64,000 nt of DNA, from contig NC_089595.1 of NCBI RefSeq assembly GCF_019320115.1, positions 112,360,461-112,424,460 on the forward strand. The letters are read 5' to 3'. The DNA is from Miscanthus floridulus (Eukaryota; Streptophyta; Magnoliopsida; Poales; Poaceae). The position numbers were made by a program, and so were the translations under genes. The notes beneath the pieces are model-generated. The model was given only the letters and a program-made list of their open reading frames with translations, had not been told where the DNA came from and ran no database searches. This document shows, piece after piece, positions 30,137 to 64,000 of the stretch; the first letter of the stretch is position 1; the number at the start of each line of letters is the position of its first letter.

Positions 30137-30340
30137 TACGTGCGCAAACCATTACACCACTCTATGAGTCCATAATCCATCTAAATTAAGCCAAAAGACT
30201 AAAGAGTAAAGCAACAAATAAGATAAAGATACAGATACATCATACATCAAACATCATACAAGCACCAATCTTCGCGGCATGAGTAGAAATAGCCAAGCTC
30301 ATGGCTTCATGGGTCTCATGGAGTCATGGTCATGGATTCA

Positions 30341-32940
30341 AGATCTACAATCCTTATATAGGCCATTTTTTCATTTAAGAAAGTTTGAACAAAATGTAAT
30401 TCAAATTTTTGACTAGTGTTTGATAAAACTTTCTCAAATGGGAAAATAAGCTATGTAAAAATTGTAGATCTTGCTGAGATGATCAAACTTGGTATTCAGA
30501 GTTTTTTCATCTGAGGTCATTTAGTGTCTCATTTGAGCAAGTTTACCAAGTCAAATTTGGTCAAATGAAAAAACAACACTTTGACTCTAGTATTATGAAC
30601 TCTAAATGACTTCAAATTGAAAAGTTTTGAATACCAATTTTGTTCAACTCATCAAGATCTACAATTATTGTTTTGGTCAACTTTCCATTTGAGATAGTTT
30701 GGATGGTTCAAATTTGTGATTTTTAAATTTTGATGCCTACAAACTAGTTTTCGGAACCCTACATTGTCTCAAATTGAAAAGTTTTGAATACCAAGTTTGT
30801 TCATCTCATCAAGATCTACAATCCTTATATAGGCCATTTTTTCATTTGAGAAAGTTTGTATAAAATGTAGTTCAAATTTCACAAGTGTGTGACATAGTTT
30901 TAGAAAGTCTATATGAGATTCAAGAATTTGTGACTAGTGTTTGATAAAAATTTCTCAAATGGGAAAATGAGCTATGTAACAGTTGTAGATCTTTCTGAGA
31001 TGATCAAACTTGGTATTCAGAGTTTTTTCATCTGAGGTCATTTAGTATCTCATTTGAGCAAGTTTGACCAAGTTAAATTTGGTCAAACGAAAAAACAACA
31101 CTGACTCTAGTATTATGAACTCTAAATGACTTCAAATTGAAAAGTTTTGAATACTAAGTTTGTTCAACTCATCAAGATCTACAATTGTTGTTTTGGTCAA
31201 CTTTCCATTTGAGATAGTTTGGATGGTTCAAATTTGTGATTTTTAAATTTCGACGCCTAAAAACTAGTTTTCGGAACCCTAGATTGTCTCAAATTGAAAA
31301 GTTTTGAATACCAAGTTTGTTCAGCTCATCAAGATCTACAATCCTTATATAGACCATTTTTTCATTTGAGAAAGTTTGAACAAAATGTAGTTCAAATTTC
31401 ACAAGTGTGTGACATAGTTTTAGAAAGTCTATATGAGATTCAAGAATTCGTGACTAGTGTTCGATAAAACTTTCTCAAATGGGAAAATGAGCTATGTAAC
31501 AATTGTAGATCTTGCTGAGATGATCAAACTTGGTATTCAGAGTTTTTTCATCTGAGGTCATTTAGTGTCTCATTTGAGCAAGTTTGACCAAGTCAAATTT
31601 GGTCAAATGAAAAAACAACACTTTGACTCTAGTGTTATGAACTCTAAATGACTTCAAATTGAAAAGTTTTGAATACCAAGTTTGTTCAACTCATCAAGAT
31701 CTACAATTGTTGTTTTGGTCAACTTTCCATTTGAGATAGTTTGGACGGTTCAAATTTGTGATTTTTAAATTTCAACGCCTACAAACTAGTTTTCGGAACC
31801 CTAGATTGGCTCAAATTGAAAAGTTTTGAATACCAAGTTTGTTCATCTCATCAAGATCTACAATCCTTATATAGGCCATTTTTTCATTTGAGAAAGTTTG
31901 AATAAAATATAGTTCAAATTTCATAAGTGTGTGACATAGTTTTAGAAAGTCTATATCAGATTCAATAATTTGCGACTAGTGTTTGATAAAAATTTCTCAA
32001 ATGGGAAAATGAGCTATGTAACAGTTGTAGATCTTGTTGAGATGATCAAACTTGGTATTCAGAGTTTTTTCATCTGAGGTCATTTAGTGTCTCATTTGAG
32101 CAAGTTTGACCAAGTCAAATTTGGTCAAACGAAAAAACAATACTTTGACTCTAGTATTATGAACTCTAAATGACTTCAAATTGAAAAGTTTTGAATACCA
32201 AGTTTGTTAAACTCATCAGGATCTACAATTGTTGTTTTGGTCAACTTTCCATTTGAGATAGTTTGGACGGTTCAAATTTGTGATTTTTAAATTTCGATGC
32301 CTACAAACTAGTTTTCGGAACCCTACATTATCTCAAATTGAAAAGTTTTGAATACCAAGTTTGTTCATCTCATCAAGATCTACAATCCTTATATAGGCCA
32401 TTTTTTCATTTGAGAAAGTTTGTATAAAATGTAGTTCAAATTTCACAATTGTGTGACATAGTTTTAGAAAGTCTATATGAGATTCAAGAATTTGTGACTA
32501 GTGTTTGATAAAAATTTCTCAAATGGGAAAATGAGCTATGTAACAGTTGTAGATCTTGCTGAGATGATCAAACTTGGTATTCAGAGTTTTTTCATCTGAG
32601 GTCATTTAGTGTCTCATTTGAGCAAGTTTGACCAAGTTAAATTTGGTCAAACAAAAAAACAACACTTTGACTCTAGTATTATGAACTCTAAATGACTTCA
32701 AATTGAAAAGTTTTGAATACCAAGTTTGTTCAACTCATCAAGATCTACAATTGTTGTTTTGGTCAACTTTCCATTTGAGATAGTTTGGATGGTTCAAATT
32801 TGTGATTTTTAAATTTCGATGCCTAAAAACTAGTTTTCGGAACCCTAGATTGTCTCAAATTGAAAAGTTTTGAATACCAAGTTTGTTCAGCTCATCAAAA
32901 TCTACAATCCTTATATAGGCCATTTTTTCATTTGAGAAAG
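30341..32940. repeat. Tandem array of ~521-bp units, each with inverted sub-repeats
   Basis: The phrase AGATCTACAATCCTTATATAGG recurs at about 30341, 30812, 31332, 31854, 32376 and (variant) 32897, giving spacings of 471, 520, 522, 522 and 521. The first unit lacks about 50 bp. Inside each unit, GATCTACAA...TTTGAGAAAGTT occurs in plus orientation, then inverted ~135 bp later (AACTTTCTCAAATGGG...TTGTAGATC), then plus again (GATCTACAATTGTTGTTTTGG). AT-rich and non-coding. Confidence 0.92.
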
Positions 32941-33191
32941 TTTGAATAATATCCGGATAATATCCGTTTTAATATCCAGATATATCCGATACTTAACCGG
33001 ATTATCCGATATCCGCCGGATATCGATGATATTACATCCGTATTTGATATCCGCCAAAGATATCCGTTTTATTATCCGTATCCGAAAAAAAATCCGGATA
33101 TCCGAGTAACTATTCAGATAAGTGTTCATATTTGTTCGGTCGAACGGACGGTCGAATAAATATCCGTACCGTTTTCATCCATATGCACATG

Positions 33192-58863: not shown

Positions 58864-61800
58864 TATAACACCCCGGTGTTATGCCTGCATGTAGGCACTG
58901 CAAATCATACATATCATACATCATCAAGCATCCTAATCATACATGCCTAATCATGTAAATAACAATTGAAACACTGCTTCGAAACATATGAAACATGTTG
59001 TGAAACCTGAATGTTTCATACATTTGTTAGAATGGTTTTGCCCTGATTTTGCTTGCTAGGTTAGTAAAACATGTTTGGCTACTATTGTAAATCATCTAGG
59101 ATTATTTAGTTCAATTTTTGGAGCAAGGTTTGTATTCAAATTAATTCAAAATTTTGCTTCCAAAGTAATTTCCCGAAAATTAGGGTTTTGAGTTAAACAT
59201 GGACTTTGATTTTACAATTCAAAATCTAGAAAGAATTTGGCTTTGGTCATAAAAGCAAAGTTGTAGAGAATTAAATTCTAATCAACTTTCATTTTTTGGT
59301 ACATTTTCAAAAGATGTCATTTTCTTGCTCGAAATAATATTTGAAAGTTGGCATTTAAAAATTCCTTGAAAATACAAATGAAAAAGGGCTTTTTCTCCTT
59401 CGCGGGCCGCCGCCTCGCTTCTGGCCCACGGCCGAAGCTGGCCCAGCCAGCCTCTCGCCGCGCCACGTGCCTCGCCTCGGCCCAGCCCAGCCCAGCGCCG
59501 TGCCTGCCCTGCCTTCGCGCGCGCCTGCCCACTGACGCGCCGCGTCGCGCCCGACTGTGGCAGAGCTTGCCCGCCGCGTGGTGGCCATGCGCCGTCGACG
59601 CCGCCGCGCATCGCAGCCGGCCTGCGCCCGCGCCCACGTGCCCGCCTATTCCTACCGAAGCCGGTGCGCTCGCTCGCTCACTCCCGCGCTGCTTCTCCTC
59701 TCCGCCAGCACCGCGCGTACTCGCTCTCCTCCTTGCCGCGCCACCGCACCCGCCGGCCAAATTCACCGCGCCTTCTCCACCGCGGCCAGCAATCACGTGC
59801 CCACAGTTCCGCCTCGCTCTCCGGCACGTCGTGCTCACACCCGTGCCGACTTCCGAGCTCAGGTAGCGCCATCTCGAGCTTCGCCACCGTCGGCCATGGC
59901 GCCGCCGTGCTCGGCCGCCGTGGAAGTCGCCCTTCCTTCTCTTCTCCACCCTGCCTAGCTACCTTCCCGCCTTCGCCATCTTCTCGCAAGCCTCATGCTC
60001 CCGCTAACTCGCCCTGTCACGGCCGGCAATGGCCGCCGGCCTCGTGGCCGAGCCACGCCGCCGCGACGTCGCAGCGCCGGCGTGGCCTCTGCCTCAGCCG
60101 AGCCAGGCCGAAAGGCCATGGGCCGACGCCCTGCCGGGCCATCTCCCCCTTCCATTCGCTTGGGCCGCGCAGGCCAAATGTGGCCGTGGGCCGATTGAAT
60201 CCAGCGGGCTGGCCCAGTAGAAATAGGATGAATTGTTTTCAATTTATTCTTTTTTATTTGAAAATAGAAATGGTTTGAAAAATGTTTGGATACTCAAAGT
60301 TGCTCTAAATCTATTGAAATAAATTTGTCTAGGTTACTTATCATCAGATCTACTTGGGAAAATTATTGCATGTCATTTTTGAGATACTTTGCTGTAGAAT
60401 TTTATTTAATCATGTATATTGCTGATAACTTGAAAAATATGTAGAAAAATCTATAGGCTTCAGAAAAATATGATTCCAAGTTTGTTAATCTTCTTATGTC
60501 ATGTACTTCCTAGGAAAAATATGTTTCATGCATGGGCTGTGGGAAAATTTTGAGGTGTAGTTCAAGTACCTTTAATGGCTGATTTTTGTTATTTTAGTTA
60601 GAGAGCAAACTTTGTATAAAACATGTATGTGATAATTTTTGTACAGTCATTGTATGCTATGAAGAATATAGGAAAAATACTAACTCTGTTGTTTGACACT
60701 TTTCACAGTACAAAGTATTTTCATGTACATAATCATGCCATAGCTTGTTATTTTTGTGTAGGCTAATCCACTCATTCAAATACCATGAAAATCTGATAGT
60801 AAACTACTTAGGGTAGTACTATGCTGTAGTAATTTTCTAAGATTTTTCTAAGCAATAAAAATAGATATTGCTATTCAAACCTATTATTAATTAGGGTTTA
60901 ATTAAGTGTTGCTTTTTGTGGGATTAAGAAATTAGTAAAGCTTTGGTGTATCTTTGAAGCATTTAATAAAATATGTTGACATAACATATTAGTAGTAGAA
61001 GAGAATGCAGTAGATGACATGTGCTTGTAGTATATTTTCTTGGATGATGTTGACTACCTCGCATTCAAACATATCCATTGTATTCATCTCATCCGATGCA
61101 CCGATTGCATAAGCACTTACGCACATTGCATCATACAGGATCGCAAACCGAGAACCCAGTCATCATACCCGAGGAGCCCGAGGAGCAGTTCGAGGTGCAG
61201 CCGCAGGAAGTGCTAGAAGCCGACGAGGAGGACGTTGAGGAACTTCCGGAGTGCCCTGATCATCGTCCGAGCTCCTTCGAGAGAGGCAAGCCCCAGAGCA
61301 TTTTCTCCCGATTTGCAATTATTAATTCAATGCTTTACTTTAATTGATGCATTATGTTCAGGAGTTGTTTGCAACCGTTGCTGCATTATACCTTGTCTAC
61401 CTTTGTTATACTATATCCTTGTTACCCGGGTATCCGCAGTCGAGTCAATGCTTAGCTGGCTTAGACCGGTAGAAGTTGGGTGATTTCCTGTCACCTGTGA
61501 GCTATAGGTGGTTACCTGGATCTGCTTGGATGACTATGAAGTCATGGTATAACTAAGTGTTAAATGAAATTAAGACCAGACAGAGACTTGTAGAGTTTTG
61601 GACTATAGTGTTTCCGTCTGTGTCGATTAAGGACCGACCGTTGTTGGGCCTCGAGTCATGTTGAACGCATGCCTTACATTTAGCTGGCCGGATAAAGTAC
61701 CTTCCGACCGCGAAGCTGGGAGATTATTCGGGACGAGTAGATTGCCCGCAGCGCACTGTGCCGGAGCAGGTGTGGTAGGACATGGGGGCGAGATGATAAG

Positions 61801-62756
61801 ACCAAAGTGCAGTCGGTCGGCCCCCGGGTACATGTGGTTCCTGGCAAACTCGAGATTCCTGGATAGTTGACTCGGTGATCAATATCTCACTTTAGTGGGT
61901 GAGTGAGGTTTGTGTAAGGAATAAATCGCCAGCTGGTTAGGAATCGATTCGAATCGCCATCGCTCCTGGATAGTGAGCACTTGACTTGAGTTACTTTATC
62001 GTAGTAAATGTTTATGGAACACTTGGACAGTTATAGTGAATATGATAGGATGAAAGTTGTTTAATGATCATTGGTTATCATTATCTGCTTAATTATATGT
62101 TTGCTCTAGTATAGGTGCAAATCTAGTCGACAGGTTAATAATAATTAAATTGACAATAATGCTTTTAGGAAGGTTCTTGAAAGGCTAAAAATGCTTCTTT
62201 TGCAAATGAGTCAGCTACCCTACTATAAAGCCCTTCATAATCCTTGGTGTCACTTATTTTCGGTTATGTCGGGTAAGTCTAGCTGAGTACCTTCTCGTAC
62301 TCAGGGTTTTATTCCCACTTGTTGCAGATAGGCAGATGTATTACGGCTACTGTATCAACTGCCTTTATCCTGCGATGGGTGATGCTTAGGACCATGGGCA
62401 TGGTCATTCCTTACGTCTCGTCTGATGCTTTTGTTGGAGATGATCATTCGCTGGCACTATATTTGAACTCCGCGTGAGTGTGTGTGTGGTTTGAACAAAT
62501 GGCTTCCACTACTTTTATTCGAACTTGTTTTGTAATAACTATGTTGAAACTCTGATGTATCTGAGATTGCAAACTTTTATGTAATATGTGACGGTGACCG
62601 CTAAACTTATTATGATCTTGGCTGGAATGGAAGTTGGTTTGAAATCCTTCATGATTTCACGGACTACCGGGTTATACGGGCTTAAGTTTGCTAAATTGTC
62701 TGCTCTGGCGGATGATTTTCTTACTTAATTTCATATAATTGGTCGGTTCTGTTACA
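58864..62756 (+). repeat. 5' LTR, 3.9 kb
   Basis: Starts TATAACACCCCGGTGTTATG and ends GGTTCTGTTACA. It is divided into an AT-rich start, a very GC-rich block (59390-60200), a long AT-rich block (60230-61080) and a mixed end. An acidic open frame at 61078-61347 and GC-block frames are not supported as genes. Confidence 0.7.
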
Positions 62757-62758
62757 GC

Positions 62759-62772
62759 TGGCATCAGAGCAT
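62759..62772 (+). promoter_or_regulatory. Primer binding site
   Basis: TGGCATCAGAGCAT, two bases after the LTR end, differs by one base from the initiator tRNA-Met complement TGGTATCAGAGC. Confidence 0.8.
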
Positions 62773-63547
62773 GGTTTAGTGTGTGTACTATTCATAAGTG
62801 TATTTAAAACAAAAAGGCATTTGGAAAACGTGATTTTCAAAATATAAAGTGTGCCAGTGATCATATCCTTTATGCCCAGTTAAGGACTTTAGGTGGCTTA
62901 ATTAAGTACTGACTTGGGGTTCTTGCATCATATTTCTCTTTCGTCGCTCATACGGCGTGCTATTGTATGAGTGCCACTTGTTTGAGTGGTAATGAATGGA
63001 TCATTTGCCTCTACGCCTTGGTAAGTGTGAGTTGTGAGAGCATGATCGGATACACCGCCGATCTAGGGTGAATGCTTATATGATGCTGGAGTAATTACAT
63101 GTTCTACGCATGTTTTACAAAGGTATCTCATGTATGGGTCTTCCGTCTGTGGAGGCGATGCCATCAATAGGACGATGGTTCGGGTAGTTACTACCGTTGT
63201 ACACGTTTCTGGGGATTCGTGTAGAGCGTGTAGATAAAAATTTACTGCTTTTATGCATTCATTGGAAATTGGGCTGAAATGAATCTTCTGCAGGTACATA
63301 ACAACGCTATCGTGTAGAACGTATTAGCTACGTATTGAGAGATCGTTTGTATGCCACCGAATTCGTCGTTAGAAATTATTTATTTCATAAGTTTGTGAGA
63401 ACGTACGGCATGTACATACATCATATTACTTGTGCATTTCATTCATGTCATGCATTCCTCCCCTTATAAATTGATTATCTCCTTTTGATATAAGTTGTAT
63501 CACCTAAAATATGTTTCCCCGGGGTAATAAAAGAACTTTTGCTACAG
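62773..63547 (+). other. Untranslated leader of the long-LTR element
   Basis: No coding frame is supported. It ends in ACTTTTGCTACAG, which looks like a 3' splice acceptor, immediately before the H3-like reading frame, so the leader may be spliced. Confidence 0.45.
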
Positions 63548-64000
63548 ATAGCCTGCACGAAGCAGACCGCCCGTAAGTCCACCGGAGGAAGAGCACCTCG
63601 ACGTCCGTTGGCCCTGAGGGCGCACCGCACCACGGACACCTTCTTGAGCGAGTTTGGCATGCCAACTTTGCTTTGGAGAGTGCTCCATGATGTGGGGTAC
63701 CCAGAGGGTCAAGAGCCGGTGTACTCTTGGAATGAGAGCCAGTTAGCAGAGGATGGACTCGCAGTGGTGGAGATCACGGTTCCTGCTCTCGGTGATGCTC
63801 CAGATTGGGATGGTTGGCATTTGGAGTTTGAGGGTCGCACTCCAGCTGAGGGTGCAGAGGGAGCAGCCTTCCGTGTCATCAGGGATATTACGAGCAGATT
63901 TCCCAGTGAGCTTGCAGCAGCTCTAGCTGGCACTTTTCCTAGGGATGATCCTCGTGATGCCATTTGGGTTCAGCCTCAGGGAAGTGCATTGGTCAGAGGT
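63548..64000 (+). CDS. ORF with a histone H3-like N-terminal tail, continues past window
   Basis: The frame is open from the TAA at 63491 to the window end. From 63551 it reads ACTKQTARKSTGG, then R, APR, RP, LAL, RAHRTT. Compared with the histone H3 tail, 12 of the first 13 residues and 18 of the first 24 agree, including Lys4, Arg8, Lys9, Ser10 and Arg17. Lys14, Lys18 and Lys23 are Arg, and Arg2 is Cys. The codon in the start position is ATA. The first in-frame ATG lies much later (63659), inside the following domain. That domain is not recognised (FGMPTLLWRVLHDVGYPE, VEITVPALGDAPDWDGWHLE) and lacks the histone fold. It sits where gag is expected. Whether this copy is expressed is doubtful without an ATG. 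Confidence 0.6.
   Translation, partial: MACTKQTARKSTGGRAPRRPLALRAHRTTDTFLSEFGMPTLLWRVLHDVGYPEGQEPVYSWNESQLAEDGLAVVEITVPALGDAPDWDGWHLEFEGRTPAEGAEGAAFRVIRDITSRFPSELAAALAGTFPRDDPRDAIWVQPQGSALVRG

What the first reader, a model, noticed from the sequence alone, without database searches (positions are those of the whole stretch)
63548..63640. Histone H3 tail at the N-terminus of a retrotransposon ORF
Seen: from 63551 the frame encodes ACTKQTARKSTGG followed by RAPR, almost the canonical H3 tail (A-R-T-K-Q-T-A-R-K-S-T-G-G-K-A-P-R), with Lys4 and the ARKS motif at Lys9/Ser10 intact. The rest of the ORF is not histone-like. Known: this tail is the target of H3K4 and H3K9 writers and readers, and Tekay/Del-type chromoviruses carry integrase chromodomains that bind H3K9-methyl chromatin. 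Inference: the element has captured or evolved an H3 tail mimic that could be methylated and recruit, or compete for, chromatin readers. The start codon (ATA) and Arg2 (TGC) each differ from the expected codon by one transition, as if recently decayed.
Basis: partly seen in the sequence, partly recalled or inferred. Interest (0 to 1): 0.92.

Follow-up and report, generated by a model that had tools for sequence, protein, structure and literature searches.

The report
Histone-tail mimic in grass retrotransposon
An abundant grass jumping element carries an extra protein whose first 21 residues copy the tail of histone H3, kept by selection with the two lysines that cells methylate, fused to a domain shaped like those of the RNA-silencing machinery; the resemblance to H3 seems to have been reported before, but its conservation pattern makes a chromatin-mimicry idea testable.

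Summary
Window 63548-63613 encodes the H3 N-tail (start codon position plus residues 1-21) at the start of an extra ORF between primer-binding site and gag of a ~14.4-kb Gypsy element (LTRs 97.5% identical, TSD CGTCC). In 58 genomic copies of three clades K4, K9, S10 and G13 are kept in 58/58, position 14 is R in 58/58, and K18/K23 are R, H or C with one exception. Between clades silent sites are near saturation (pS 0.55-0.64) but pN is 0.08-0.14. The tail has about the extent of coding exon 1 (Met-K23) of intron-containing host H3 genes, and these give the best codon match in each clade. The body is a predicted dsRBD; the RNA-contact motif KKxAK occurs in none of 172 proteins. A tail-less sister family shares 91-94% of the leader with one tail-bearing clade, so ORF1 moves as a module. 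5' extra ORFs with a DRBM-like fold (PMC11728184) and, as I recall Steinbauerova 2011, H3 similarity are already known in grass chromoviruses. New here: extent, selection pattern, exon boundary, modularity. Mimicry itself is inference.

The parts
58864..62756 (+). 5' LTR (starts TATAACACC, ends TGTTACA); 3' LTR at L009:5421-9312
   Evidence: 97.5% identical, 97 mismatches and 1 gap in 3891 columns; 5-bp duplication CGTCC on both outer flanks
62759..62770 (+). primer-binding-site-like tggcatcagagc, 2 bases after the LTR
   Evidence: sequence; that it fits initiator-Met tRNA is recalled
62757..63547 (+). leader with 22 ATGs; possible intron: donor-like CAG|GTA at 63291-63296, acceptor-like CAG at 63545-63547
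   Evidence: AGGTA at -249 to -257 in 5 of 5 copies looked at (of 58 held); CAG before codon 1 in 56/58. No transcript evidence
63548..63613 (+). H3 N-tail mimic: codon 1 (ATA here, ATG in 26 of 28 subfamily copies) plus H3 residues 1-21
63548..64000 (+). 5' extra ORF (ORF1), continues beyond the window and ends ..DDGPEE; open for 329 residues in 3 of 28 subfamily copies read; the window copy carries stops
63653..63913 (+). dsRBD-fold domain (residues 36-122 of the model of relative P0002)
   Evidence: AlphaFold2 models, Foldseek and VIA-align matches

Best explanation
A Tekay-type grass chromovirus lineage took up the first coding exon of a host H3 gene of the intron-containing (H3.3-like) kind, Met to about K23, and uses it as the N-terminus of its 5' extra-ORF protein. 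The protein offers a histone-like N-terminus (Met-Ala start; A1, K4, K9, S10 kept; acetylation-site lysines 14, 18, 23 changed to R or H) on a dsRBD-fold, coiled-coil body. Most likely it works in the nucleus as a decoy or adaptor: host H3K9 (in some clades also H3K4) writers or readers bind the tail, which blunts silencing of the element or tethers its complexes to chromatin. Supported by tests: H3 homology, place in the element, conservation of the peptide, predicted fold. Inferred: donor gene, expression, methylation, binding and effect.
For: Between-clade tail pS 0.55-0.64 against pN 0.08-0.14 (dN/dS 0.08-0.14); linker pN 0.41-0.60, dsRBD pN 0.19-0.35. A1, K4, K9, S10, G13, R14, P16 58/58. 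Coding exon 1 ends after K23 in 8 of 8 intron-containing host H3 genes (splice sites inferred from sequence), and in 2 of 8 (L023, L024) a tgcag abuts the ATG as CAG abuts codon 1 in 56/58 element copies. The host gene with the largest excess of identical codons is an intron-containing one in each clade: A 11.0 vs 4.6 expected (L028), B 8.5 vs 4.9 (L028), D 11.8 vs 5.8 (L027), of 20 genes. For 420 protein pairs with body identity 40-60%, tail identity is 79%, linker 27%. dsRBD fold. At least 150 scored matches with tail in this genome.
Against: No transcript, peptide, modification or binding data. In the proteins K4 is R in 12 of 43 and Q5 is L in 22 of 43, so a strict K4-reader role cannot hold for all clades. 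In the B-D comparison the tail is no more constrained than the dsRBD (dN/dS 0.142 vs 0.129), and within clades A and B its ratio is higher (0.79 vs 0.35; 0.52 vs 0.21); only within D is it lower (0.14 vs 0.28). For closer protein pairs (body identity 70% or more) tail and body identity are about equal. Codon test: p 0.002 for the best of 20 genes, uncorrected; in clade A other intron-containing genes (L023-L025) are the worst match, and different clades favour different genes. A sister family does without the tail.
Confidence: 0.45

Rival explanations
1. The captured H3 tail is kept as a basic nuclear-localisation or nucleic-acid-binding segment, not as a mimic of a modified histone.
For: Changes at 14, 18 and 23 are mostly K to R or H, keeping basic character; related 5' extra-ORF proteins are predicted nuclear (PMC11728184, passages).
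Against: Uncharged positions T3 (56/58), S10, G13, P16 (58/58) and L20 (57/58) are at least as conserved as R2 (52/58) and R8 (55/58); a charge-only role does not ask K4 and K9 to stay lysine while the other lysines change.
Confidence: 0.25
2. ORF1 is mainly an RNA-silencing suppressor acting through its dsRBD (on dsRNA or on DCL4/DRB4-type complexes), and the tail is a minor add-on.
For: Fold matches to DCL4 and DRB7.2:DRB4; DRBM-like model and suppressor suggestion in PMC11728184 (passages); the tail-less sister family keeps the dsRBD.
Against: The RNA-contact motif KKxAK (recalled) is in none of 172 proteins, so direct dsRNA binding is doubtful; it does not explain tail conservation.
Confidence: 0.2
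3. The tail is a passive relic of a transduced H3 fragment without function.
For: Most copies read are broken (25 of 28 subfamily copies have their first stop before index 329; L004 at 318 may be a length variant and L030 was read for 453 bases only); a tail-less family also thrives; within clades A and B the tail ratio is not low.
Against: Between clades pN is far below pS and below that of the flanking linker.
Confidence: 0.07
4. Chance resemblance or convergence, not homology to H3.
For: Short segment of 21 residues.
Against: Profile E 1e-6 to 2e-5 to H3, exact start at Met-Ala, extent close to host exon 1, codon excess toward some host H3 gene in each of three clades.
Confidence: 0.03

Closest known systems
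5' extra ORFs (aORF/eORF) of Poaceae Tekay chromoviruses: maize Tekay, sorghum Sb7, rice Retrosat-2/RIRE3/RIRE8 (PMC11728184, passages read; Steinbauerova et al. 2011, Genetica 139:1543, not held, abstract recalled)
   Same: Place before gag, long C-terminal helix, DRBM-like predicted fold in maize and sorghum (PMC11728184); partial similarity to histone H3 in part of the chromovirus ORFs (recalled from the 2011 abstract).
   Different: Here the similarity is mapped to the H3 tail alone, with selection pattern, K4/K9 retention, K14/K18/K23 replacement and a tail-less sister family; direct sequence comparison with the published ORFs was not possible.
Viral histone-tail mimics such as influenza NS1 (recalled)
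   Same: Foreign protein with an H3-tail-like end and a domain of RNA-binding type.
   Different: Here N-terminal, 21 residues with a histone-like start, apparently derived from a host gene; no functional data.
Plant DCL4 dsRBD2 and DRB7.2 dsRBD (PDB 9k9p, 8igd)
   Different: 10-15% identity; other dsRBDs, including RNA-binding ones of RNase III and DCL3, score within 1 Z; no partner shown.

Membership tests
Tekay/Del chromovirus (Gypsy) | paired LTRs with target-site duplication | tested here: met
   97.5% identical LTRs, CGTCC both sides
Tekay/Del chromovirus (Gypsy) | gag, protease, RT, RNase H, integrase in this order | tested here: met
   Retrotrans_gag, zf-CCHC/RVP_2, RVT_1, RT_RNaseH, Integrase_H2C2, SH3_Tf2-1 (frames broken by stops, searched piece by piece)
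Tekay/Del chromovirus (Gypsy) | type II chromodomain at the integrase C-terminus | tested here: inconclusive
Tekay/Del chromovirus (Gypsy) | place in an RT/INT phylogeny | not tested
   no reference set fetched
Poaceae chromovirus 5' extra ORF | sense ORF between primer-binding site and gag | tested here: met
Poaceae chromovirus 5' extra ORF | sequence homology to published maize/sorghum/rice ORFs | not testable with these tools
   the published ORF sequences were not found in what is held; supplements not open
Histone H3 | N-terminal tail | tested here: met
Histone H3 | histone fold | tested here: not met
   no Pfam hit for the window ORF; the body is predicted as a dsRBD
dsRBD | alpha-beta-beta-beta-alpha fold | tested here: met
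dsRBD | RNA-contact motif KKxAK at helix 2 (recalled) | tested here: not met
   found in 0 of 172 proteins anywhere
functional histone mimic | modified by histone enzymes or bound by histone readers | not testable with these tools
   needs bench work

The most novel reading that the evidence does not exclude
A two-headed anti-silencing protein of a retrotransposon: an H3-derived tail, pruned of acetylatable lysines so that it serves as a dedicated K4/K9 methylation decoy for host writers and readers, fused to a dsRBD that does not bind RNA but docks on DCL4/DRB complexes; possibly the missing ligand of the element's own type II integrase chromodomain.
Probability: 0.2. Interest if true: 0.88.

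Novelty: new member of a known kind. Interest (0 to 1): 0.62.

Why it matters
Plant transposons are silenced through H3K9 methylation and small RNAs. An abundant element family that keeps an H3 tail with K4/K9 intact but K14, K18 and K23 replaced, on a DCL/DRB-like domain, gives a concrete and cheap test of histone mimicry by a mobile element. It offers a candidate answer to two open questions: what the 5' extra ORFs of grass chromoviruses do, and what type II chromodomains bind.

Tried and rejected
Chance neighbour of gag: rejected (separate ORF, tail present in divergent clades). Recent independent captures in each clade: disfavoured by near-saturated silent differences between clades. dN/dS of the tail among close subfamily-A copies: uninformative, since copies were found with a 201-bp query that includes the tail. 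In the between-clade test one copy (by its ATA start and frame, L047), fetched as subfamily A, was assigned to D by score, so A counts 27 and D 25. My first motif count for KKxAK (0 of 142 segments) used a pattern that could itself miss such a motif; the unbiased count is 0 of 172 proteins anywhere. Viral contigs gave no relatives for P0001 and P0135. Pfam found no family reaching its cut-off for the body (in one search cut-offs were shown for the first member only). The tail is predicted disordered (pLDDT blocks 46 and 42). Paper searches for a histone-mimic retrotransposon: 0 papers; 20 of 33 listed; 1; 1; 15 of 105 listed; none of the listed titles and abstract starts reports it; the library holds open-licence papers only, and the 2011 Genetica paper is not in it. 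PMC11728184 and PMC7264820 have no occurrence of histone in the main text. Clades C, E and F were seen only as proteins. A literature check of DRB7.2 failed.

Full report
What is there. The window is part of a 2.68-Gb genome (G000:C16), by its size and content a large grass genome (inference; the name is not given). Window 58864-62756 is the 5' LTR of an LTR retrotransposon whose 3' LTR lies in the fetched continuation (L009:5421-9312), about 14.4 kb in all; the LTRs are 97.5% identical and a 5-bp duplication CGTCC flanks the element. At a recalled grass rate of 1.3e-8 that is roughly one million years. After a primer-binding-like site (62759) and a 0.8-kb leader comes ORF1 (63548 onward), then gag, protease, RT, RNase H and integrase, frames broken by stops, ending in a chromodomain-like stretch. 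The finding lies at the first codons of ORF1, which is not gag.

The tail. The window copy reads I-ACTKQTARKSTGGRAPRRPLA; 22 of 28 subfamily-A copies read begin exactly MARTKQTARKSTGGRAPR. The family profile finds histone H3 at E 1e-6 to 2e-5 within positions 1-28. Among 172 retrieved proteins, 43 pass a tail filter that favours conservation: K9, T3 and L20 43/43, S10 41, K4 30 (R in 12), Q5 19 (L in 22), position 14 R in 38 and K in 1, position 18 H in 30 and R in 9, never K. In 58 copies from the genome (clades A, B, D) A1, K4, K9, S10, G13, R14 and P16 are 58/58; R2 is 52/58, T3 56/58, R8 55/58, L20 57/58. The copies were found by similarity to the window stretch or to P0060, and only 40 and 150 of 1392 and 10304 first-look candidates were scored, so they are not a random sample.

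Selection. Between clades the tail has pS 0.55-0.64 and pN 0.08-0.14, the linker pN 0.41-0.60, the dsRBD pS 0.68-0.78 and pN 0.19-0.35. For protein pairs with 40-60% body identity the tail is 79% and the linker 27% identical (420 pairs); for closer pairs tail and body are about equal. Against: in B-D the tail ratio (0.142) is not below the dsRBD ratio (0.129), and within clades A and B it is above it (0.79 vs 0.35; 0.52 vs 0.21), within D below (0.14 vs 0.28). I read this as long-term purifying selection on the peptide with decay of recent copies superposed; subfamily A says nothing, because its copies were found with the tail in the query.

Origin. In 8 of 8 intron-containing host H3 genes coding exon 1 ends right after K23 (inferred from sequence); in 2 of 8 a tgcag abuts the ATG, as CAG abuts codon 1 in 56 of 58 element copies. 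That these genes are H3.3 genes is recalled from their introns, not tested. The host gene with the largest excess of identical codons is intron-containing in each clade (L028 for A and B, L027 for D), but in clade A other intron-containing genes match worst and intronless ones come third to fifth; for clade A the best p was 0.002 over 20 genes, uncorrected. Capture of exon 1 is favoured, not proven.

ORF1 as a module. A tree of 37 bodies needs two label changes between 32 tail-bearing and 5 tail-less proteins (P0142 and P0155 are long branches). The tail-less family has at least 150 matches in this genome (150 scored of 10063 candidates). Two of its copies compared with two of clade D share 91-94% of about 1.4 kb upstream, the match stopping six bases into ORF1; P0103 joins a clade-D-like tail to a tail-less-type body. 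ORF1 is exchanged at its start.

Known and new. 5' extra ORFs of Tekay elements and a DRBM-like fold in maize and sorghum are in PMC11728184 (passages read). I recall from the abstract of Steinbauerova et al. 2011 that part of the grass chromovirus extra ORFs resemble histone H3; the paper is not held. So this is a new member of a known kind, with new detail.

How it may work. The start Met-Ala, the kept K4/K9 and the loss of acetylatable lysines suit a decoy or adaptor for H3 writers and readers; the dsRBD suits docking on DCL/DRB proteins; both point to the host silencing machinery. This is inference; expression and binding are untested.

Noticed in passing
window 30338-32952: Tandem array of about 520-bp units roughly 93% alike, with internal inverted similarity.
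   Followed up: no
window 9752-11085/24176-25505, 33316-33799/37958-38439, 46234-47251/57820-58846: Further direct-repeat pairs at LTR-like spacing (97.0%, 92.1%, 92.9% identical); the element of the finding starts 18 bases 3' of the last one.
   Followed up: no
window 61054-61347 (and L009 7587-8039): LTR-internal frames; the window one holds an acidic peptide (..VIIPEEPEEQFEVQPQEVLEADEEDVEELPE..), possibly an LTR exon.
   Followed up: no
L066/L074 versus L080/L085: Tail-bearing clade D and the tail-less family share 91-94% of leader and upstream sequence, then diverge six bases into ORF1: module exchange.
   Followed up: partly
leader, window 63291-63296: AGGTA at -249 to -257 before ORF1 in 5 of 5 copies looked at from three clades; candidate splice site.
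   Followed up: partly
proteins P0105, P0112-P0115, P0128 and kin: A clade with K4 replaced by R and Q5 by L but K9 intact.
   Followed up: partly
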